A stretch of 39,059 bases of DNA. It comes from a virus. How positions within the stretch are numbered: the stretch's first letter is position 1; the number at the start of each line of letters is the position of its first letter. The DNA is taken from positions 1-39,059 of IMG/VR virus record IMGVR_UViG_3300034980_000151. The stretch is one strand, 5' to 3'. The notes below the pieces were generated by a model. That model was not told the origin of the DNA and did not search any database. It was given only the letters and a program-made list of their open reading frames with translations. Both the position numbers and the translations under genes were made by a program. Positions 12,857-38,377 of the stretch are shown here, piece after piece.

Positions 12857-13125
12857 ACGTAAAAAGCACGCTATTCGACCAGCTACAATACGTTGATTGT
12901 ATTGAAAATCTATACAAAATGGGCGAGCCAGTATCAAAGTTACACCGCCTAAAAGACTTGGATTCCGACCAAATGTTACTATTTGCGACAATCAAAAAAG
13001 ATGGAGATTTTGCGGTGATCTCAGGCGAGGATTTAACATTTATGACTTACAGATACTATTCAGGCCCTATCGAATTCAGGGTATTTAGTGCGACAAAAAA
13101 AGAGCCCCACGAAGGGGCCCTTTAG
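12853..13125 (+). CDS. Small early protein of unknown function
   Basis: A 90-residue mixed alpha/beta protein. It starts in the ATGA overlap with the methylase gene and ends within a terminator-like hairpin. No motif is recognised. It shares an operon with the methylase, so it could act with it, but nothing else supports that. Confidence 0.6.
   Translation: MNVKSTLFDQLQYVDCIENLYKMGEPVSKLHRLKDLDSDQMLLFATIKKDGDFAVISGEDLTFMTYRYYSGPIEFRVFSATKKEPHEGAL
13099..13123 (+). terminator. Hairpin at the end of the methylase operon
   Basis: AAAG-A-GCCCC (13099-13108) pairs with GGGGC-C-CTTT (13114-13123) around an ACGAA loop, with one mismatch. It overlaps the last codons of the 12853 gene. The A-rich left arm and T-ended right arm suggest it could work as a terminator in either direction. 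The T run is short. Confidence 0.55.
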
Positions 13126-26686: not shown

Positions 26687-26969
26687 GTTTGAGAAAGGCA
26701 ATAGCGCAGGCAAGGGTAGGGGTAAGGGCGTTCCTAACAAAACAACAGCCGCTAACCGTGCTATGATACAGGCCATTATAGATAGTCAAGGAGACAGGCC
26801 CCAAAAGGAAATAGAGAAGCTAGAAGGGAAAGCGTATGTAGATGCAATCTTTGTCCTTTACGAATACGTAACACCGAAACTAGCGAGAACAGAAATAGCA
26901 GGGGACGGCAACGCGCCTATATCAATAAATATTACCAAGACGTATGCAGCTGACTCTAAAACAGACTGA
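26679..26969 (+). CDS. terS: Terminase small subunit-like protein
   Basis: A 96-residue basic protein with a GTG start. The N-terminus FEKGNSAGKGRGKGVPNKTT has the G-N-x-x-G-K-G-R-x-K-G-x-P-N-K-T-T pattern of phage small-terminase/DUF5681-like proteins. It lies directly before, and overlaps by 26 bases, the large subunit gene. The small subunit recognises the packaging site. Confidence 0.75.
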   Translation: MGKFEKGNSAGKGRGKGVPNKTTAANRAMIQAIIDSQGDRPQKEIEKLEGKAYVDAIFVLYEYVTPKLARTEIAGDGNAPISINITKTYAADSKTD

Positions 26970-28257
26970 GGCATTTGATTACTTGGAAGACAAGACAACC
27001 AACGAGCTATTATTTGGAGGAGGTGCAGGAGGAGCTAAAACAGTTCTTGGTTGTTTGTGGCAGTTAACACGTAGATTACAATACCCAGGCACTAGAGGAC
27101 TGGTAGGTAGATCAAAACTAAAGACCCTAAAAGAAACTACGCTGAATACCTTTTGGGAAGTATGCAAAATGCAGGGCATAACCTCAGACCATTACCAGTA
27201 TAACGCCCAGATGGGTATTATTGAGTTCAACAATGGGAGTCAGATTCTACTTAAAGATTTGTTTTACTATCCTAGTGACCCGAATTTCGACAGCCTTGGT
27301 TCATTGGAGATAACCGATGCCTTTATAGATGAGTGCAACCAAGTAAGCGTAAAGGCAAAAAACATGGTCAAGTCGAGAATACGATACAAGCTCGATGAGA
27401 ATGGATTAACGCCTAAGATGTTACTAACATGCAACCCCGCAAAGAACTGGACCCACTCAGAGTTCTACAAGCCGAGTAAGAGCGGAACACTACCTAAAGA
27501 CAAGAAATTCATACAGGCTTTATTGGGTGACAACCCGCATATATCAGAACACTATAAGGCCAATCTACTAACCCTAGACAAGAACAGTATCGAAAGGCTG
27601 TTACATGGCAATTGGGACTATGACGCAGACCCAGATACATTGATGGACTTCGACGCAATAAGCGACCTGTTTAGTAATGAAGGTGTAAAGGCGGGCCAAA
27701 AATGTATAACGGCCGATATAGCCAGAATGGGTAAGGACTCAACGGTATTGGGTGCATGGGATGGGTGGCGCTTAATAGAATACGAGAAATACCCAGTAAC
27801 GACTATTCCCGAATCAGTAAACCATGTTAGAGCAATGGCAACGCGTCACGGTATAGGTATGAGCCAAACGGTAGTAGATGAAGATGGCGTAGGAGGAGGA
27901 GTAAAAGACACGCTATACTGTCAGGGTTTTGTCAATAACTCAACACCACTACCTGAAAACGGTAACATACCCAACTATAAAAATCTCAAGGCCCAATGTC
28001 ACTATTACATGGCAATGAAGGTCAACGCAAGGGAGGTTTATACTGGATGTATTCAAGGTGTAGATCGAGACACACTAACCGAGGAGCTAGGAGCGGTAAA
28101 GGGCTACCATACAGACACGGACCAAAAGATACAGGTAATGCCAAAGGAGAAGGTAAAAGAGTTGATTGGTAGGAGCCCTGACATAGCAGACATGGTAATG
28201 ATGCGGGCTTTCTTTGATCTTAAAAACACGGGACAATGGCACGACAATCTAAAATAA
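26944..28257 (+). CDS. terL: Terminase large subunit
   Basis: A 437-residue packaging motor with both domains. ATPase: Walker A GGGAGGAKT (25-33) and Walker B DAFIDE (125-130), with the coupling motif LLTCNPAKNW (160-169). Nuclease: Asp258 (TADIARMGKDS), Asp312 (VVDEDGVGGG) and Asp413/Asp416 (SPDIADMVMM). It is full length, with the small subunit before it. It cuts the concatemer and pumps DNA into the prohead. The packaging type cannot be fixed from this sequence. Confidence 0.95.
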   Translation: MQLTLKQTEAFDYLEDKTTNELLFGGGAGGAKTVLGCLWQLTRRLQYPGTRGLVGRSKLKTLKETTLNTFWEVCKMQGITSDHYQYNAQMGIIEFNNGSQILLKDLFYYPSDPNFDSLGSLEITDAFIDECNQVSVKAKNMVKSRIRYKLDENGLTPKMLLTCNPAKNWTHSEFYKPSKSGTLPKDKKFIQALLGDNPHISEHYKANLLTLDKNSIERLLHGNWDYDADPDTLMDFDAISDLFSNEGVKAGQKCITADIARMGKDSTVLGAWDGWRLIEYEKYPVTTIPESVNHVRAMATRHGIGMSQTVVDEDGVGGGVKDTLYCQGFVNNSTPLPENGNIPNYKNLKAQCHYYMAMKVNAREVYTGCIQGVDRDTLTEELGAVKGYHTDTDQKIQVMPKEKVKELIGRSPDIADMVMMRAFFDLKNTGQWHDNLK

Positions 28258-28274
28258 AGACATACGCATACCTT

Positions 28275-28406
28275 ATGACTAATTACTATCTGGATTCAGA
28301 TACAGGGACCGCGTATAGGGTTATCATGCTAACCACCAATGAAGATTGGTTTATAGGACTAAGAGAAGAGCATAAGCAGGAAATACTACTAACACTACTG
28401 AATTGA
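28275..28406 (+). CDS. 43-residue ORF between TerL and the tail gene
   Basis: It reads MTNYYLDSDTGTAYRVIMLT and 23 more residues. It ends in a TTGA overlap with the TTG start of the next gene, which argues that both are translated in one chain of coupled genes. Acidic, unknown function. Confidence 0.5.
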   Translation: MTNYYLDSDTGTAYRVIMLTTNEDWFIGLREEHKQEILLTLLN

Positions 28407-29062
28407 TCGAAATAACAATAGAGGAAACAGTTTACGAGATACCACAGGTAAAGGAATTTACCATTGCTGATATAGTGCGGTTTGAAAAAGCTGATGAAAG
28501 CCATAAGAGCAGAGGTATTAAATACTGGGCTGAGATCACACAGATACCATACAAGGCACTCAGGAAGCTAGGCAACACAAACTACCAGGAACTAACCTAC
28601 CTAGTTCAGCAGGAATGGGACAGCTTTGGAGACAAGGCCACAGAAGAAGCATTGCAAGATATGAGTGTGGAGAAGGTAGACATAGGCGGTGAAGAGTATA
28701 GCATACCCCAGAACTTAGGCGAGTTACCAATAGGTAAAATATCTGATTGCGATTTGTATGCAGAGGCCAACGTGGATGGTGACGGCAACATAAAACCTTG
28801 GGCCTATTTTCCTTACATGCTGGCTATTATGTGCGAGCGTGAGGGGTGGGATTATGAAGAGGAGATAGGTTCCTTTCCAGAGAGCACGAAGGAAGTATTC
28901 TCCAAGGCCAACGCCCTACACGCCATGGCAATACATTTTTTTTTTCTAGGGATAGGGCAAGGCTACGAGATAAGCATCAGCGCAGGGTTAAAGGAGACAG
29001 TGACGAAGGAAAATATATTCGCGCAGGCGGGAACAAGCTTGAAGAACACTACAGTAGCATGA
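28403..29062 (+). CDS. Tail-assembly-chaperone-like protein, short form
   Basis: A 219-residue acidic protein with a TTG start overlapping the previous TGA. Codons 178-181 hold ten Ts (28936-28945). A -1 slip there opens a frame that runs without a stop to 29229 and gives a 275-residue long form. This short/long pair with a shared N-terminus is the pattern of the siphovirus tail chaperones gpG/gpGT. The family itself is not recognised from sequence. It lies at the start of the tail block, upstream of the tape measure. Confidence 0.7.
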   Translation: MIEITIEETVYEIPQVKEFTIADIVRFEKADESHKSRGIKYWAEITQIPYKALRKLGNTNYQELTYLVQQEWDSFGDKATEEALQDMSVEKVDIGGEEYSIPQNLGELPIGKISDCDLYAEANVDGDGNIKPWAYFPYMLAIMCEREGWDYEEEIGSFPESTKEVFSKANALHAMAIHFFFLGIGQGYEISISAGLKETVTKENIFAQAGTSLKNTTVA

Positions 29063-29229
29063 TGTTATTTAAACGATTAGCGGACAACCTAACAACGATA
29101 AACCGTATGTATCGCCTAGACGCTAAGTATGCAGAGGACGTGCCTTTAGAACAGGTGTTAATGTTTACATCTATGACGGGTGATATTGACCAAGTAAATG
29201 CTAACTTTAACAATCCAAAGCACAGGTAA
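28403..29229 (+). CDS. Predicted -1 frameshift product (long tail chaperone form, joined at about 28945)
   Basis: Codons 1-181 are those of the short form. After the T run the ribosome slips back by one and reads TCT AGG GAT from 28945 on, giving 94 further residues to 29229, in total about 275. There is no stop in that frame between the T run and the ATG at 29059. The extension contains KYIRAGGNKLEEHYSSMMLF, then the 29059 chain, and looks like real protein. An alternative is a length error in the T run. Confidence 0.6.
28936..28945 (+). promoter_or_regulatory. T10 slippery sequence for programmed -1 frameshift
   Basis: Ten Ts followed by C. In-phase codons are CAT TTT TTT TTT CTA. T-TTT-TTT allows perfect re-pairing of both tRNAs after a -1 slip. 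The zero frame goes on for 38 codons to TGA 29062, the -1 frame for 94 to TAA 29229. Confidence 0.65.
29059..29229 (+). CDS. Downstream part of the frameshift product; possible separate ORF
   Basis: A 56-residue frame starting ATGATG in overlap with the TGA of the short form. It is open upstream of this ATG as far as the T run, so it is more likely the tail of the frameshift protein than an independent gene. It could also be made by re-initiation. It ends in a TAATG overlap with the next gene. Confidence 0.55.
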   Translation: MMLFKRLADNLTTINRMYRLDAKYAEDVPLEQVLMFTSMTGDIDQVNANFNNPKHR

Positions 29230-29750
29230 TGTCTAGTTTCATTCAGTTAAAAGATTTATCAGACATTTGGTCCGAAATAGTAACGGATTGGAAAGAGAAG
29301 GACTTAAATTACTTCTACGGCATTCCTGCTAATGCTGATCTTGACGGTGAGGCATCCTACCCTATGTTGGTGTTTCAAGTTCCAAGATTGGTAGATGTTC
29401 CCAACCAAGACAGCCATAATTCTTACGGATCATGGGCTATTACAGTAGACGTTTTAGACATTGTGCATAGTGAGATAACCAACGAGGAGTTCGGTGAGCA
29501 TGTGAACAGAACAAACGACATGATACGGGCCCTAGTTCAGCGATTCAGGGACAACTACAGATACGATGGAGCCATCAACAGCAAGACAATTAGCTTTGAG
29601 ATAACCACACAACCGTCATATACAGACCTTTTTCAAGGTGCAACGGGTGGAGAAAGCCCTACGGCGGCTACTGCTGGGTGGCGTTGTGTGTTCACTATCC
29701 AAGATGTGGCGGCAACACAGGCATGTATCATTAACGATTTCTTTGATTAA
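29229..29750 (+). CDS. Tail terminator / minor tail-like protein
   Basis: A 173-residue alpha/beta protein. SYPMLVFQVPRLVDVP, then WAITVDVLDIVHS, then a MIRALVQRFRDN helix and ATAGWRCVFTIQDV form the N-to-C pattern of small tail-completion proteins in Bacteroidetes phages. It starts in the stop of the frameshift gene and ends in the start of the gp10-like gene. The exact role is inferred. Confidence 0.6.
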   Translation: MSSFIQLKDLSDIWSEIVTDWKEKDLNYFYGIPANADLDGEASYPMLVFQVPRLVDVPNQDSHNSYGSWAITVDVLDIVHSEITNEEFGEHVNRTNDMIRALVQRFRDNYRYDGAINSKTISFEITTQPSYTDLFQGATGGESPTAATAGWRCVFTIQDVAATQACIINDFFD

Positions 29751-30500: not shown

Positions 30501-30944
30501 ATGGCAGAAACATTTACAGTAAATACTACTTTTGAGTATTCAGATTCAAATGGTATTGCACATACGATAGAGGCGGTAGGATTCTCTATAGACACGGCAA
30601 CCAATTACGTTAAGCTGGACCAGAAGATACCCGTCAACAGTTCAACACATACAACGGTGCTAACTATGGGCGCTGATGCGGCGGGAGGTCTTACGTCCGT
30701 CAACTATGTAGTAATAGAAAACCTCGACACCACCAACGCGCTACAGGTAAAGGTATTCGATACGGGTGGCCACACGGCATACATCAAGATACCAGCCGAG
30801 GGGCATTATACATTAATGACATCTAACATGGAGGTCGACGAATCAGAAACAGCTTTTAGTGCTTATTCTACCACGGATACTATAACGGTATTGAATGCTG
30901 CCAGTGATACGGACTTTGTAAGAATCCTTGCAATAGGCACATAA
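30501..30944 (+). CDS. Beta-rich tail structural protein
   Basis: A 147-residue Thr/Ala-rich beta protein (YVVIENLDTTNALQVKVFDT, then EGHYTLMTSNMEVDE). It could be the tail-tube subunit or a small tail-tip protein. It shares the operon with two large tail proteins and the tape measure. Its stop overlaps the next start. Confidence 0.6.
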   Translation: MAETFTVNTTFEYSDSNGIAHTIEAVGFSIDTATNYVKLDQKIPVNSSTHTTVLTMGADAAGGLTSVNYVVIENLDTTNALQVKVFDTGGHTAYIKIPAEGHYTLMTSNMEVDESETAFSAYSTTDTITVLNAASDTDFVRILAIGT

Positions 30945-32470
30945 TGGCGCTAACTATACAAACATCTCCTCCGTCTTGGGGTGCTGTATATAGGCCGTTG
31001 GAGTTTGAGGTATCAAGCGACATTAACCCATCTACGCACCCTTACGACAATGTAAACATCATATCCGTAAGAAAGGCTAATAACTCGGACCAATCTTTGG
31101 GCGCTCAGTCTGATGACGTGGTAGTGGTTCATGCTTTCTCTCCTCTGTTTCCAACGAAGCAACATATTGAGATAGTTGATCTAACCGACGAACTATACAA
31201 AGGCGTGTATAGGGTGAAGCGCAAACTGAGCAACACCAAGTGCGTAATTGATACCTCTTACAATGGTGACGATTACGGCGGCACGATAAACAAGTATTAC
31301 AATCGTTTTGGTATTATCTGTAGAGTGTATCTAGGAACAGCAGCCACGGGCACACCGTTAGCGAAGTTTAAAGTTGATGTGAAAGACAGTAGCGATAACT
31401 ACCACTTTGACGTAAGCGGACTATTGCAAAAAGAGTTAGGCCCGTATTTCGCTACCTCACCACCTATACAGGGTCAAGATGGAGGCGATGTATATACCAA
31501 TTACATATGCACGTTCACAGAAGAGTATGACTTTTTACTTAACGATGGCACGTATCCGCTAACAGAAACAACAGGCAACAAGGTTACGAGTTCTGTGTTT
31601 ACGGCTGTTAATTCGGCCCCTCAGTTTGTCATGATGCGTAACCAAGTTCATGAGTCGGATATACGCGATGACTTAGCCTCCTTTGTTGTTGATCTGGTAG
31701 ACACCGATGCTCGGTTTTTAACCAACGCACCACAGGCTATTGACGTATGGCAGGACTTCGACACGGGTAATGAGAGCCCATTTCAGTTACAGGTATGCAT
31801 GGAGGGTGGTTTGGCAGCGGGCACGTATGACATGTATGTCATTGCTTACAATGCGGCTGGTGGAGTGGTAGCGTTTAACGGCATGGGATTTACTAAACCA
31901 ACAACGGATAGCGTTATCACTTTTAATGCAGGACCAGCGGGCTTTACACTAACAGAAGTCCCAGCCACAACGAGATACTACACCATACAGCTACGTAAGG
32001 ATGCTAGCGCAATAAGCGAATTACGGCGGTTTAACATCTTCTCAGACTGCAAACCAGGCGAAAAGCTCTTTCATTGGGAGAACGTCTACGGTGGTATAGA
32101 TACTTATTTGTTCAGGGGTGCAGAATCACAGCAGCTAAAACACAAAAGGAGTCTTGTTCAGAGCAAACTATCGGCTACACATTCCGATCTACAAGAGGCA
32201 GAGGTAAGCGTTAGCGAGGTATCGAGCGAGGAACTATTTACCAGCAACACCAGTATTCAGAGCTTAGAGTATCGGGAATGGCTCACGGGTATATTAAAGT
32301 CTCCGAGGGTATGGGTATCTATCAAGCGTAGTAGCGAGTTCGGGACAACAAGTAAGATACCAGTAGTAATAAAGGACGGCAATGTAAACGTATGGAACAG
32401 CCAGAAGTCAACAGGTAACTTTAGTTTTAAATGGAGGTTCGCACACGAACAAATATCTCAACGTGCCTGA
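30944..32470 (+). CDS. Large tail protein (tip/baseplate-like)
   Basis: A 508-residue protein. SPLFPTKQHIEIVDL, CVIDTSYNG and KVDVKDSSDNYHFDVSGLLQ match a family of tail proteins frequent in Bacteroidetes phages and prophages, where F-D-V-S-x-x-L-Q is a fixed stretch. The stop overlaps the GTG start of the next tail gene. Distal tail location is inferred. Confidence 0.65.
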   Translation: MALTIQTSPPSWGAVYRPLEFEVSSDINPSTHPYDNVNIISVRKANNSDQSLGAQSDDVVVVHAFSPLFPTKQHIEIVDLTDELYKGVYRVKRKLSNTKCVIDTSYNGDDYGGTINKYYNRFGIICRVYLGTAATGTPLAKFKVDVKDSSDNYHFDVSGLLQKELGPYFATSPPIQGQDGGDVYTNYICTFTEEYDFLLNDGTYPLTETTGNKVTSSVFTAVNSAPQFVMMRNQVHESDIRDDLASFVVDLVDTDARFLTNAPQAIDVWQDFDTGNESPFQLQVCMEGGLAAGTYDMYVIAYNAAGGVVAFNGMGFTKPTTDSVITFNAGPAGFTLTEVPATTRYYTIQLRKDASAISELRRFNIFSDCKPGEKLFHWENVYGGIDTYLFRGAESQQLKHKRSLVQSKLSATHSDLQEAEVSVSEVSSEELFTSNTSIQSLEYREWLTGILKSPRVWVSIKRSSEFGTTSKIPVVIKDGNVNVWNSQKSTGNFSFKWRFAHEQISQRA

Positions 32471-34511
32471 AACACTCTACATAAACGGTAGTAAGGTGGC
32501 CCTAGCAAAAGGGATGAAAGGAATAGTATCCTTTGATATATCTATTGATGACTACCGTAACCCCTCGGCACGTAGAGGCCATAGAAGTAATTCAGTAACA
32601 ATACCCAAGACCAAAGCTAACGAGGACGTTTTAGGATATACCGACCCAACCGTAACAGGTCAGGACTTCGACGATAAGGCACTCAACGAATACTACATAA
32701 CCGACCACGCAGGGGTAACAACTTCTAAAGGAATAGCCGATGTTGTAGAGGGTGGAGACTCTTACAAGGTTCGTTTGTATAGTAACAACGCCAAATGGAG
32801 TTTAAGGGGCGACATACGCGACCTAGACATGGGCGAGAAGTATTTTGATGAGAGCGAAGCGGTAGCCACCTTTGACAAAACAGGCTGGGACGTTAGATAT
32901 ACTATGATAGATTACGGTGTATTTGAGGACTTAAAAGGCGGCAAATTAGGCGATGCAATACGTATCAACGAGCTATTCCCAGCTATCAGCGTAAAACAAA
33001 TCTTAGATCGGGCCTTTGAAGAGATCGACCACACCATTAAATACGAGGGTATTTGCAAGAAATGGATCGATCGATTAGAGATACCTTACACTGGCAAGGG
33101 CATACAGATAACCCAAAGAGACAAGGATGACAATGTAGCTATTGCGGAGCGGGCTATGCAGTTATTTAGGGCCACTTGGACGGGTCACATGTGGCTAAAG
33201 ATTCCCATACCTGTAGAAACCTTTGACCCAGGTAATAATTACTTCGTACCACAGGCCCCGCCAAATATACCTCAATACAGTTGCCCCTTTGACGGTGACT
33301 ATGATATACACATTGAATTTGATTTAGAGGTAATTAACGTAGGTATGGGTAATCTCGGCGCTCCTCCCTTGTTAGGTGAGTGGGAATACACCTTTCAGCT
33401 ATGGCATAGCGTATGGACACCGACCCAGATAGCAGCGGAAAAAAAGCTAAAGCCCAACAATGGCATTCCTTTACTGCAATGGCAGACCACAAAAGAACAC
33501 GTAGACATACTGTTCACCGATGTTCCAGCTATTGTATTGCAGACATTTTGGTTTATGTTCTACATAGAGAACACCCCAGAGCATGGAACAGCGTCAAAGA
33601 TAGGCCCCGCCACGGTAATAAGGAACCTAAAATGCACCTACACGCCTAAAAACATACCACTAGGTGAGGGTGCGAGCTTCGATATAGCTAAGACATTACC
33701 CAAGATGAAGCAAAAAACGCTCTTTAGGTCCGTAACTCAGCTATTAAATCTGATGATTGACACGCCCGACGATAGCACAGAGATTACTTGCATGACCTAT
33801 GACGATTTCTATCTGAGCGAAACAAATGCAGACGACTGGGAAGACAAGGTAGATACGTCAAAGCCTGTTAAGTTCTCCAAGCTCAAAGAGCTAAAAAAAG
33901 AGTTAGAGTTTAGTTGGTTAGATGATGACGATTTATTGCTCACTGAGGCAGACAAAAAAGATTATGCTGATAGGACATATGAACTACGAGATGAGTTCTT
34001 AGAAGGGTCCGTAGACGTTGTAAAGATGCCTTTTGCAGCTACCAAGATGGGTAATTCGTTTGACAATACGATATATATGCCTTTGATGTATAAAGATGAG
34101 GACGAGATTTCCACCGAACGCAAACCACGATTACTACTAAACGGCGGTAAGGTATTGGGTGGATGGCGCAGCACCCGACACGGATACGAAGCATATCCTT
34201 TAAGCTACTTTATACCAGCTACCAGAGGAGACTTCGATATGAGTCTAGCAATGGGCAACCACGACAATCTAAAAGGCATTGTAGACAAACTACATTTAGA
34301 CAAGATAAGCAAGTGGGATAACTCAAAGATGATGCTTTGCCATGTGAGGCTGAACAGTAAGGACATGCTAAACTTAAACTTTCGCAATCCTAAGAAACTA
34401 CGTATGCCAAACGGCAATACGGCCTACTTCTTTTTAAACAAGATAAAAGGGTATTTACCAGGCGTTGACGGTAGCTACCCGTGTGAACTAATACAAGTGC
34501 CCAATGGCTGA
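32463..34511 (+). CDS. Large tail protein, Bacteroidetes tail-tip family
   Basis: A 682-residue protein from GTG 32463. The N-terminus LYINGSKVALAKGMKGIVSF, then IDDYRNPSARRGHRSNSVTI and PKTKANEDVLG follows a well-known pattern of Bacteroidetes phage tail proteins (a strand, a turn, R-x-x-x-S-x-x-x-x-I-P-x-T-x-x-N). The length suits a Dit/Tal-like tail tip protein. Overlaps the tape measure gene by 8 bases. It lies before the tape measure, which is unusual for tip genes. Confidence 0.7.
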   Translation: MPETLYINGSKVALAKGMKGIVSFDISIDDYRNPSARRGHRSNSVTIPKTKANEDVLGYTDPTVTGQDFDDKALNEYYITDHAGVTTSKGIADVVEGGDSYKVRLYSNNAKWSLRGDIRDLDMGEKYFDESEAVATFDKTGWDVRYTMIDYGVFEDLKGGKLGDAIRINELFPAISVKQILDRAFEEIDHTIKYEGICKKWIDRLEIPYTGKGIQITQRDKDDNVAIAERAMQLFRATWTGHMWLKIPIPVETFDPGNNYFVPQAPPNIPQYSCPFDGDYDIHIEFDLEVINVGMGNLGAPPLLGEWEYTFQLWHSVWTPTQIAAEKKLKPNNGIPLLQWQTTKEHVDILFTDVPAIVLQTFWFMFYIENTPEHGTASKIGPATVIRNLKCTYTPKNIPLGEGASFDIAKTLPKMKQKTLFRSVTQLLNLMIDTPDDSTEITCMTYDDFYLSETNADDWEDKVDTSKPVKFSKLKELKKELEFSWLDDDDLLLTEADKKDYADRTYELRDEFLEGSVDVVKMPFAATKMGNSFDNTIYMPLMYKDEDEISTERKPRLLLNGGKVLGGWRSTRHGYEAYPLSYFIPATRGDFDMSLAMGNHDNLKGIVDKLHLDKISKWDNSKMMLCHVRLNSKDMLNLNFRNPKKLRMPNGNTAYFFLNKIKGYLPGVDGSYPCELIQVPNG

Positions 34512-36942
34512 ACAGAAGGATATATTTTTTAGCGTAAAGATAGATGGCAAGGATACGGTAAAGACCATCGGCCAGATGACGGGCGAGTTGCAAAACTCTA
34601 AGAACCAGTTAACGAAACTCAACAAAGAGTTTAAGACGGGCAAGATAGGCCAAGAGGCCTACGGGAAAGCTGCTACCAAGCTACGAACGAACATTAAATC
34701 TTTATCGGGCAATCTGCGTGAGGCAGAGAACAAAATGTCGGGCCTCACTAAGCAGGGCTTACGGTTTCGGGATAAGATGGCGGGCGGGCTAACTAAGTCG
34801 ATAAAAGAGGTCGGGTTGCAGTTAGGTAAGGCATTTGCTGTGGGAGCTATAGTCGCGGGCCTTACTAAGATGGTAGATATTTTTAAGGACTTTGCAGCGG
34901 CTAACAGCACGCTAACGGCAATCTTAGGCGGCACAGAGGAGCAGATGAAAGCCCTGTCAGATCAGGCTAAAGCGTTAGGAGCATCTACGGCCTTTACCGC
35001 TTCTCAGGTAGTAGAATTACAAACAGAATTTGCCAAGTTAGGCTTTACGGCAGAGCAGATAGGTGATGTAACAGAGGCCACATTGAATCTCGCAGCGGCG
35101 AGCGGCACAGACTTAGCAACGGCAGCAGCAACAGCGGGTGGAACATTAAACGCATTCGGTTTAGCAGCGACAGAAACGGGTCATTTAACCGATGTAATGG
35201 CAGCTAGTTTTACTAAATCTGGTTTGGATATGACCAAGTTTAGCGAGACAATGAAGTCAGCGGCCCCAATTGCAAAGGCGGCGGGTGTAAGCCTAGAGGT
35301 AGCAACAGCGGCAGCGGGTAAACTGGCAGACGCCAATATCTCAGGCTCGGTAGCTGGAACAGGACTAAAGAAAATCTTTGCAGAGCTAGTAAAAGACGGT
35401 AAGCCTTTAGAGGAAAGCCTAGACGATATAGCGCAAGAGATGGAAGGTGCAAGTAGCAACGCTGAAAAGTTAGCTATTGCCGAGGGTAGGGTAGGAAATA
35501 TTGCAAAGGGTTCTTTATTGGTTCTGGTAGAGCAAAGAAAAGAGCTTGGTGCGTTGGCGGGCGAACTAGAAAACGCCGACGGTAGTGCACAAGCAATGGC
35601 TGACACTATGCTAGACAACTTAGCGGGTGATATTACTAAGGCTGGCAGCGCATGGGAAGGCTTTGTATTGAGCCTTGAAGATGGAGAAGGTGTTATTAGT
35701 GACGTTTTACGGGGTGTTACACAAGGCACTAGCGAGTTGTTAGCCAGGTTAACGGACCTAAACAGTCTCGGTTTTAGCGGGACCATAGCCAAGAACACCA
35801 AGGAAGGCCTAGAGGAGCAATTTGGTATAACTGACAAGATTGTAAAACTAAGGAAGGCGGCAGCAGACGGTGATGAAGAGGCCGCAAAGAGGCTTGAAAC
35901 GCTTGTATTAGGACTTAGGGGTAAGGTAGAGGGCTTGATTGGTGAGGGTGAATTAACAGCAGCACAGGCGCTATCTGATTTAGTAAAAGAAGCTGGCGCA
36001 GTAGGTATTGGAGGTGAGCCCGTAGAGGGTGGTGCAGCGGTAGAGGGTGAAGGTGAAACGGGCGGCGGTGGCGGTGCGGTATCTCCAAAGGTAGAGGCAG
36101 CACAGACAGAGGCCCAGATGTTAGCGGAGATTAAAGCCATTGAAGATCAACTAGCTTTAGACGCATTACTAGCCACAAAGGAAAAAGAGCAAGCTATATT
36201 AGATGCCCAGCTAGAGCACAACAGGGAGCGCGACGAAAACGACCTAGGCGATAGGGTTGCTGCAAACGAAGCAGAAAAAGAAACTAACCAAGACAGGATA
36301 GACCAGTTAGCAAAAGACCAAGAAGCAGAGGCAAACATAAGACTAGCAAGGGTGGCAAGCGCACATAGCGCACTAGGCAGTATAGCGAGAATAGCAGGAG
36401 AAGAGACAAAGATAGGTAAGGCGGCACTCGCAGCGCAAAAGGCAGTAGCCCTAACACACATAGGTATTAATCTAGGTAAGGAGCTGTCCGCGATTGGCAC
36501 AAATGCAGCAGCTAACCCCCTAAACATACCTACAGCAGGTATAGCGGGCGTAACTCAAACGGCAATACTTAGCGCGCTTGCAATAGGAAAAGCCGCAGTA
36601 AATACGGGTCTGGTATTAGCCGCAGCGGGTGGTGCTGACTTCGTGACAACAGGCCCGCAGATGATGATGGTAGGAGATAATCCAGGTGGCCGAGAGCGGG
36701 TAACAGTGGAGCCATTGTCAGGAGCAGGAACAACACGAATGTTAAACGGTGTTCCTCATTTGGCAGGGGGTGGTAGCGTAACCACAGGAGTAGGGCAGAG
36801 CTTTGTAAGCGATAACGGCCAATCTCAGATGGCAGACCAGATACTTGAGGGAATGAGTAACATGAATATAGGATTGAATATACATGAGTTAAACGCGGCC
36901 CAAGCTGATTTAAGTAACGCCGTTGAAATGTCAGAAGTATGA
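34504..36942 (+). CDS. Tail tape measure protein
   Basis: An 812-residue protein. Residues 1-85 form a coiled coil. Residues about 110-340 are the TP901-type tape measure core (LSDQAKALGASTAFTASQVV, EFAKLGFTAEQIGDVTEATL, AGVSLEVATAAAGKL). Residues 540-640 are a charged coiled coil, and the region 655-720 is hydrophobic. The low-complexity Ala/Gly part near 510-530 is a linker. As a rule of thumb of about 0.15 nm per residue the tail would be near 120 nm. It has an ATGA overlap with the next gene. Confidence 0.9.
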   Translation: MAEQKDIFFSVKIDGKDTVKTIGQMTGELQNSKNQLTKLNKEFKTGKIGQEAYGKAATKLRTNIKSLSGNLREAENKMSGLTKQGLRFRDKMAGGLTKSIKEVGLQLGKAFAVGAIVAGLTKMVDIFKDFAAANSTLTAILGGTEEQMKALSDQAKALGASTAFTASQVVELQTEFAKLGFTAEQIGDVTEATLNLAAASGTDLATAAATAGGTLNAFGLAATETGHLTDVMAASFTKSGLDMTKFSETMKSAAPIAKAAGVSLEVATAAAGKLADANISGSVAGTGLKKIFAELVKDGKPLEESLDDIAQEMEGASSNAEKLAIAEGRVGNIAKGSLLVLVEQRKELGALAGELENADGSAQAMADTMLDNLAGDITKAGSAWEGFVLSLEDGEGVISDVLRGVTQGTSELLARLTDLNSLGFSGTIAKNTKEGLEEQFGITDKIVKLRKAAADGDEEAAKRLETLVLGLRGKVEGLIGEGELTAAQALSDLVKEAGAVGIGGEPVEGGAAVEGEGETGGGGGAVSPKVEAAQTEAQMLAEIKAIEDQLALDALLATKEKEQAILDAQLEHNRERDENDLGDRVAANEAEKETNQDRIDQLAKDQEAEANIRLARVASAHSALGSIARIAGEETKIGKAALAAQKAVALTHIGINLGKELSAIGTNAAANPLNIPTAGIAGVTQTAILSALAIGKAAVNTGLVLAAAGGADFVTTGPQMMMVGDNPGGRERVTVEPLSGAGTTRMLNGVPHLAGGGSVTTGVGQSFVSDNGQSQMADQILEGMSNMNIGLNIHELNAAQADLSNAVEMSEV

Positions 36943-37252: not shown

Positions 37253-38377
37253 ATGGAGATAAAGAACGCGGCCACAGACACCTCAGAGCTTTCTATCTAC
37301 GGTGATATAGGCGAGGATTGGTTTGGCGATGGCCACACGATGAACAGCCTTAAAGACCAGTTAAGCGAGATCAGCACGGCAAATATCAATGTTCGTATCA
37401 GTTCTTTAGGTGGAGACGTAGACGACGGGTTAGTAATGTATAACCTATTACGCACCAATGCAGCGCACGTAACGACCTTTATCGAGGGTATGACAGCCTC
37501 GGCAGGGACAATAGTTGCCCTTGGTGGTGATCGTGTAGAGATAGATGAGAACGCTTTATTTCTAGTCCATAATGCTTGGACCCTAACAATGGGCAACGCT
37601 GACGAACTACGCAAGACAGCCGAGGACATGGATAAGATTGACGCGGCACTAATCAATATATACAAGAAACAAACGGGGAAAAGGAAGAGCCAGATTAAAA
37701 GCTTAATGGCAGAGGAGAAATGGCTAACAGCAGACGAGGCGAAAGAGTTTGGCTTTGTTGACGCGGTTATACCTACTAAACTAAAGGCCGCTGCAAGTGT
37801 AAAGAGCATCAAGGGAATAGAGGGCTTGATTACCGAAAAGAAACTACCAGAAATACCAACGAATTACATAAATAAATTGAATGAAATGACTGAAAACAAA
37901 GAAGAGGCGCAAGGCATCCTAGAAAACATCAAGGCTGCAATGGGCTTCAAAAACGATGCAAAGCTCAAAGAAGAGTTAAAAGCATCACAGGAAGAGGTGA
38001 CTACCTTAAAGGCCAAGATTGATGAGCTTGAAGGCGACACCGATCAGGCTAAACTATTAGAGACAGCCGAAAACGATCTAAAAGAAGCTAACACGAAAGT
38101 AGAAGCATCTGCAAAAGAGGTAGAGACTTTACAAACTTCTATTTCTGAGTATGACACTAAGGTAGCAGCACTACAGGCAGAGATTGAAGAGGCTAATTCT
38201 AAGGTTATCGGCGACCCGCCAAGCGGAAAGAGCGAAGCAGGTAAGCAGAATCCAGGCGACAACGAAGAGCCACAAAAGCTCACAGCAAGCGCACAGATCG
38301 TTCAGAACATGATCGAAGAGAATCGCGAATGGATTGATATCAACACACCAACAAAGAAGGAGGTAGAGAATGTCTAA
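37253..38377 (+). CDS. ClpP-like prohead protease fused to a scaffold
   Basis: A 374-residue protein. Residues 1-175 are a ClpP/S14-type head-maturation protease: ISSLGGDVDDGL (50-60), active-site Ser83 in GMTASAGTI, His106 in FLVHNAW, and WLTADEAKEFGFVDAV as the C-terminal end of the fold. Residues 215-320 are a long coiled coil, which fits an internal scaffold. Protease and scaffold are one chain, and the scaffold would be cut out during maturation. It precedes the capsid gene by about 200 bases. Confidence 0.88.
   Translation: MEIKNAATDTSELSIYGDIGEDWFGDGHTMNSLKDQLSEISTANINVRISSLGGDVDDGLVMYNLLRTNAAHVTTFIEGMTASAGTIVALGGDRVEIDENALFLVHNAWTLTMGNADELRKTAEDMDKIDAALINIYKKQTGKRKSQIKSLMAEEKWLTADEAKEFGFVDAVIPTKLKAAASVKSIKGIEGLITEKKLPEIPTNYINKLNEMTENKEEAQGILENIKAAMGFKNDAKLKEELKASQEEVTTLKAKIDELEGDTDQAKLLETAENDLKEANTKVEASAKEVETLQTSISEYDTKVAALQAEIEEANSKVIGDPPSGKSEAGKQNPGDNEEPQKLTASAQIVQNMIEENREWIDINTPTKKEVENV

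What the first reader, a model, noticed from the sequence alone, without database searches (positions are those of the whole stretch)
28930..29229. Programmed -1 frameshift on a T10 run in the first tail gene
The gene at 28403 contains ten Ts at 28936-28945. The zero frame stops at 29062, while the -1 frame is open from the T run through the ATG at 29059 to 29229. A -1 slip would give 219- and about 275-residue proteins with one N-terminus, the pattern of gpG/gpGT tail chaperones. The slip site is a homopolymer, not the lambda-type GGGAAAG, and the gene lies just behind terminase, seven genes before the tape measure.
Basis: partly seen in the sequence, partly recalled or inferred. Interest (0 to 1): 0.75.

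Follow-up and report, generated by a model that had tools for sequence, protein, structure and literature searches.

The report
Conserved T9/T10 slip in tail chaperone
A run of ten Ts inside a phage tail-assembly gene lets one gene make a short and a longer protein; hundreds of related aquatic phages keep a run of almost exactly nine Ts at this spot, which suggests that RNA polymerase slips there, not only the ribosome as in textbook phage lambda.

Summary
T10 lies at 28936-28945, the 219-codon zero frame ends at 29062, and the -1 frame is open to 29229 (275-residue fusion). It is not chance or an assembly slip.

I collected 66 relatives (50 clusters at 90% identity, 9 at 50%). Every one carries an uninterrupted T run at this site: 65 T9 and one T10, the window being the second T10. 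The -1 frame is open for 240-295 nt beyond it. Relatives include two cultured phages, Nonlabens P12024L/S, annotated as two separate hypotheticals. Codon-position variability and pN/pS switch from the zero frame to the -1 frame at the run. 28 of 67 sequences have no ATG from which the second frame could start independently.

The run stays T9 in all three codon phases, exceeds what a -1 ribosomal heptamer needs in most of them, and has no conserved downstream RNA structure. I therefore favour transcriptional slippage (about 0.65) over ribosomal -1 frameshifting (about 0.3); RNA data are needed.

A gpG/gpGT-like tail assembly chaperone role is likely but rests on weak profile hits, position and the two-form architecture. 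New variant of a known kind; the open PMC papers searched do not describe it.

The parts
28403..29062 (+). Zero-frame ORF, short product (219 aa); gpG-like tail assembly chaperone candidate; TTG start overlaps the stop (28404-28406) of a 43-codon ORF starting at 28275
   Evidence: N part homologous to relatives' N parts, hhalign E 9e-6; weak Phage_TAC_7
28936..28945 (+). T10 slip site (CAT TTT TTT TTT CTA, run starts at codon position 3)
   Evidence: T9 in 65 and T10 in 2 of 67 family members including the window, in all three codon phases
28946..29229 (+). -1 frame extension, reached by one extra nucleotide in the mRNA or a -1 ribosomal slip; gives the 275-aa long product
   Evidence: homologous -1 frames in relatives; pN/pS 0.36-0.45 in the relatives' overlap
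28946..29062 (+). Overlap: tail of the short product (38 codons and stop) in the zero frame, start of the extension in the -1 frame
29059..29061 (+). ATG in the -1 frame overlapping the zero-frame TGA (ATGA): possible reinitiation, not conserved throughout the family
26944..28257 (+). Terminase large subunit, upstream neighbour
   Evidence: PHROG E 9e-27, Terminase_3 E 1.5e-13
29229..29750 (+). Conserved downstream neighbour (173 aa, tail module; terminator-like by position only)
   Evidence: homologues in the same order in L027, L067, L081
29750..30220 (+). Conserved tail-module gene (156 aa)
   Evidence: homologues in the same order
30944..32470 (+). Conserved tail-module gene (508 aa), used as a frameshift-blind anchor to fetch relatives
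34504..36942 (+). Tail length tape measure protein
   Evidence: PHROG E 4e-59

Best explanation
The gene at 28403 is a two-product tail assembly chaperone gene. Standard decoding gives a 219-aa gpG-like short form. At the T10 run some transcripts acquire one extra U (or lose two) because RNA polymerase slips on the weak rU:dA hybrid; ordinary translation of those mRNAs enters the -1 frame and yields the 275-aa gpGT-like long form with a different C-terminal domain. As in lambda, the two forms in a set ratio would bind the tape measure and recruit tail-tube protein. Shown by sequence: conserved run, conserved -1 relation, selection on the -1 frame in relatives. Inferred: that slippage is at transcription, the ratio, and the chaperone role.
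For: Run kept in 67 of 67 sequences (65 T9, 2 T10) across 10 clusters at 50% identity, also in cultured Nonlabens phages P12024L/S. The run starts at codon position 1, 2 or 3 in different members yet stays at 9. TTC is 25% of Phe codons elsewhere and absent from the run; codon resampling gives a product of about 10^-9 over 12 lineages treated as independent. Third-position wobble moves to the -1 frame after the run; overlap pN/pS 0.36-0.45 in the -1 frame against 0.70-0.97 in the zero frame. No downstream RNA structure (mean z -0.2 to -0.4). Run length 9 is where selection against A/T runs sets in for many bacteria (PMC1088944); Tn with n>8 is the motif listed for transcriptional realignment (PMC3711429). 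Chaperone role: 3 of 49 members hit the PHROG 'tail assembly chaperone' (best E 1e-4), Phage_TAC_7 weakly, position in the tail module, short plus C-extended form.
Against: No RNA, protein or read data. Every member also contains a U_UUU_UUU heptamer in the right frame, so ribosomal slippage is possible. The window is a very diverged member: its -1 extension matches the relatives' profile only weakly (E 0.026-0.028; 2-3 of 200 shuffles score as high), and in its overlap the zero frame looks more coding. Reported transcriptional slippage of 15-55% (PMC4256274) is higher than lambda's roughly 1:30 GT:G (PMC5009743). No PDB fold match.
Confidence: 0.6

Rival explanations
1. Classical ribosomal -1 programmed frameshifting on U_UUU_UUU inside the run, as for lambda G/GT but with a poly-U site.
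For: Tail chaperone frameshifts described in the papers read are ribosomal (PMC5009743). A U_UUU_UUU heptamer in frame is present in every member, and the direction is always -1 in this family.
Against: The heptamer needs 7 Ts when the run starts at codon position 3 and 8 at position 2, yet those members also keep exactly T9. No stimulatory structure. Bacteroidetes use Shine-Dalgarno pairing little (general knowledge), so an SD-type stimulator is unlikely.
Confidence: 0.3
2. Two independent or translationally coupled genes: the second frame is made as its own protein by reinitiation at ATG 29059 (ATGA), or at TAATG in relatives.
For: Window has ATGA; 31 of 67 members have TAATG at the zero-frame stop; GenBank annotates P12024L gp40/gp41 this way.
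Against: 28 of 67 have no ATG in the -1 frame from the run to 30 nt past the zero-frame stop, and the -1 frame between run and stop is conserved as protein. It does not explain the T run.
Confidence: 0.05
3. Assembly or sequencing error, or a broken gene: true length 11 (one ORF) or 9.
For: Homopolymers are error-prone and no reads are available.
Against: T10 gives the same -1 relation as T9 in the relatives. Two other contigs (L135, L177) also have T10 followed by C. None of the 67 sequences tabulated is a single ORF.
Confidence: 0.03

Closest known systems
Phage lambda gpG/gpGT and the conserved dsDNA-phage tail chaperone frameshift (Xu, Hendrix, Duda 2004; reviewed in PMC5009743)
   Same: Short protein plus a C-terminally extended -1 form from one gene in the tail module
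   Different: T9/T10 homopolymer instead of GGGAAAG; position behind terminase, six genes before the tape measure, instead of directly before it; unrelated sequence; likely transcriptional
Transcriptional slippage genes: Thermus dnaX (A9), Shigella mxiE and spa13, Citrobacter tssM1 (A11; PMC4256274)
   Same: Homopolymer of about 9 or more, no RNA stimulators, two length variants from one gene
   Different: A phage tail assembly gene; T run conserved in length over many viruses; slippage not yet measured
Nonlabens phages P12024L gp40/gp41 and P12024S gp38/gp39
   Same: Homologous family members: T9, -1, same place behind terminase
   Different: Annotated as two hypothetical proteins; run starts at codon position 2
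Pfam Phage_TAC_7 (P2 gpE, Mu gp41) and PHROG 8963 tail assembly chaperone
   Same: Weak profile similarity of the N part
   Different: Below the curated Pfam cut-off; no structural match to solved chaperones

Membership tests
gpG/gpGT-type tail assembly chaperone | One gene, short form plus -1 extended form with shared N-terminus | tested here: met
   Arrangement in 67 of 67 sequences, selection on the -1 frame; protein products not measured
gpG/gpGT-type tail assembly chaperone | Lies in the tail module, normally just before the tape measure gene | tested here: inconclusive
   In the tail module, but directly behind terminase with six genes before the tape measure; same place in P12024L and L085
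gpG/gpGT-type tail assembly chaperone | Sequence or fold related to known chaperones | tested here: inconclusive
   PHROG 8963 E 1e-4 in 3 of 49; Phage_TAC_7 E 0.016 at best; no PDB match; one viral-library chaperone at E 0.57
gpG/gpGT-type tail assembly chaperone | Binds tape measure and tube protein; both forms required; absent from virion | not testable with these tools
   needs protein work
Programmed transcriptional slippage | A/T homopolymer of 9 or more at the frame switch, conserved | tested here: met
   65 T9 and 2 T10, three codon phases
Programmed transcriptional slippage | Heterogeneous mRNA length at the run | not testable with these tools
   no RNA data
Ribosomal -1 programmed frameshifting | In-frame X_XXY_YYZ heptamer | tested here: met
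   U_UUU_UUU lies inside the run in all phases (follows)
Ribosomal -1 programmed frameshifting | Downstream stem-loop or pseudoknot | tested here: not met
   mean z -0.2 to -0.4 over 64 sequences, no better than control windows; pseudoknots not modelled, and not every site needs one
Pfam Phage_TAC_7 | Score above the curated cut-off (25 bits) | tested here: not met
   about 15 bits

The most novel reading that the evidence does not exclude
A large clade of aquatic phages, probably infecting Bacteroidetes, sets its tail chaperone short:long ratio by RNA polymerase slippage on a fixed T9 run, and sister lineages do the same with A9/A10 runs: a transcriptional counterpart of the textbook G/GT ribosomal frameshift.
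Probability: 0.55. Interest if true: 0.75.

Novelty: new variant of a known kind. Interest (0 to 1): 0.62.

Why it matters
The G/GT frameshift is a textbook, near-universal ribosomal recoding event. A whole phage family with a rigidly kept T9 in three codon phases suggests that the decoding level was swapped while the two-protein output was kept, as known for dnaX. It would give names to hundreds of unannotated protein pairs, offers a simple marker for tail chaperone genes in aquatic phage genomes, and cultured phages exist (Nonlabens P12024L/S) in which it can be tested directly.

Tried and rejected
Close-relative scans with the window's own protein and terminase found nothing; phage-collection tblastn with the window fusion gave only two unannotated Listeria-labelled contigs at E 0.02-0.03, ignored. 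Phages 11b, phi10:1, Versailles and P12002L have portal/head genes behind terminase, a different gene order. PDB fold searches were empty. The zero-frame control used a wrong frame and is replaced. Two family-search calls failed on input. Rejected: independent second gene, assembly error, stimulatory RNA structure.

Full report
Observation. The window is one IMG/VR virus contig of 39,059 bases. T10 lies at 28936-28945 and is the only A/T homopolymer of nine or more in it. The zero-frame ORF 28403-29062 starts at TTG, overlapping the stop of a 43-codon ORF, and encodes 219 residues; the -1 frame is open past the run to 29229 and gives a 275-residue fusion. Terminase (26944-28257) lies upstream; the tape measure gene begins at 34504 with six genes between.

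Relatives fetched without using the frameshift. The window's own proteins found no close relatives. A terminase profile built with phages 11b, phi10:1 and Versailles found 80 loci. L027, L067 and L081 among them share the window's tail module in the same order. In each, the gene before the 29229 homologue has a T9 run, a zero-frame stop 179 nt on, and an open, conserved -1 frame. A scan anchored on the 30944 homologue, blind to the frameshift, and a scan with the fusion proteins gave more; every homologue in which the site was located had T9. Diverged members among the terminase loci (L056, L062, L063, L068, L084, L085, L086) also have T9 and -1. One of them, L085, led to two cultured phages, Nonlabens P12024L and P12024S, where the pair is annotated as two hypothetical proteins directly behind terminase.

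The wider family. A profile of the L085 group matched at least 549 IMG/VR stretches; the best 80 were kept. Of the distinct ones, counted with one bacterial MAG locus, 64 are T9 and one (L177) is T10; L135, whose upstream part is broken, is also T10. Combined and reduced: 67 sequences including the window, 51 clusters at 90% and 10 at 50% identity; 65 T9 and 2 T10 (the window and L177). The run starts at codon position 1 in 8 sequences, position 2 in 45 and position 3 in 14. No T7, T8 or T11 was seen.

It is not chance. Phe is TTC in 25% of cases elsewhere in these genes and never in the run. Resampling synonymous codons gives a product near 10^-9 over 12 lineages treated as independent. In 1.2 Mb of loci, which include repeated fetches of the same contigs, T9 runs (64) outnumber T8 runs (27).

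The -1 frame is the selected frame after the run. In 13 near relatives the variable position is zero-frame position 3 before the run (90% of sites vary) and -1-frame position 3 after it (81% in the overlap, 88% past the stop). pN/pS in the overlap is 0.45 and 0.36 for the -1 frame in two groups and 0.70 and 0.97 for the zero frame; before the run and after the zero-frame stop it is 0.22-0.33. So the short form's tail looks mostly like a by-product, and the long form's extension is what selection sees. The window itself is very diverged: its N part matches the relatives' profile at E 9e-6, its -1 extension only at E 0.026-0.028 (2-3 of 200 shuffles score as high), its zero-frame tail not meaningfully. 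Codon usage supports the -1 frame after the zero-frame stop (+0.27 per codon) but is ambiguous in the overlap. For the window the case therefore leans on the shared run, the shared -1 relation and synteny.

Independent second gene. The window has ATGA and 31 relatives have TAATG at the zero-frame stop, so reinitiation may add a free C-terminal piece. But 28 of 67 have no ATG in the -1 frame from the run to 30 nt past that stop, and the stretch between run and ATG is conserved as protein.

Mechanism. A -1 heptamer U_UUU_UUU needs 7 Ts when the run starts at codon position 3, 8 at position 2 and 9 at position 1. All three groups hold T9, so something other than the heptamer seems to fix the length. 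No RNA structure follows the run (mean z -0.2 to -0.4, like control windows). Nine A or T is the length at which selection against such runs appears in many bacteria (PMC1088944), Tn with n>8 is listed for transcriptional realignment (PMC3711429), and the experimentally shown tssM1 case lacks RNA stimulators (PMC4256274). I therefore favour transcriptional slippage; this step is inference. Supporting but separate: tail chaperone candidates at the usual place before the tape measure in other terminase relatives carry A9/A10, among them cultured Flavobacterium phage 11b; one group (8 contigs) has A10 and needs +1 instead of -1, which slippage in either direction explains and a -1 ribosomal site does not.

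Function. Two forms with a shared N-terminus, location in the tail module, no other chaperone candidate just before the tape measure (the preceding gene is 682 aa), weak hits to Phage_TAC_7 (E 0.03-0.04, about 15 bits), PHROG 8963 'tail assembly chaperone' in 3 of 49 members (E 1e-4). AlphaFold models of the N part are fair (pLDDT 83 and 88) and match no solved structure; in the viral library the L085 model matches uncharacterised proteins and P12024S's own. So it works like a gpG/gpGT chaperone with probability about 0.75; membership of a named chaperone family is not shown.

Novelty. Paper searches for tail chaperone with transcriptional slippage, and for frameshift in Bacteroidetes phage tails, found reviews and methods but no such case. 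The library holds only open-licence PMC papers, so absence there is not proof.

Noticed in passing
L002 13674 (Flavobacterium phage 11b, PHG11b_38/39); L012 9433; L015 18836; L031 14658; L065 12446; L071 9257; L077 18074; L048 10094: Tail chaperone candidates at the usual place near the tape measure switch to the -1 frame at A9 (A10 in L048) runs; 11b's pair is annotated as two hypotheticals.
   Followed up: partly
L029, L030, L032, L046, L050, L052, L058, L061 (A10 run): A homologous chaperone group has A10 and its second frame is +1, not -1, in eight separate contigs: consistent with slippage in either direction.
   Followed up: partly
L003 about 12880-12900 (Cellulophaga phage phi10:1): A8 at the frame switch, second frame at +1 with its own ATG just upstream; gp085 is missing from the annotation where the first frame lies.
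   Followed up: partly
L041 1436-1444: T9 within an ATPase-like ORF; the -1 frame stays open 512 nt and reads like an acetyltransferase: another possible slippage fusion.
   Followed up: no
window 37253-38377: ClpP-type protease (prohead protease candidate) lies after the tape measure, so head genes seem to follow tail genes; no portal or capsid gene was identified before the contig ends.
   Followed up: no
BFVD entries such as A0A6J5NT35 (268 aa), A0A6J5N6C8 (263 aa): Some fold matches have the length of the long form as a single ORF; natural fusions or homopolymer sequencing differences, not checked.
   Followed up: no
L131 (MAG labelled Pseudooceanicola, PAPR01000004.1): A family member with T9 on an alphaproteobacterial MAG contig, probably a mis-binned phage contig.
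   Followed up: no
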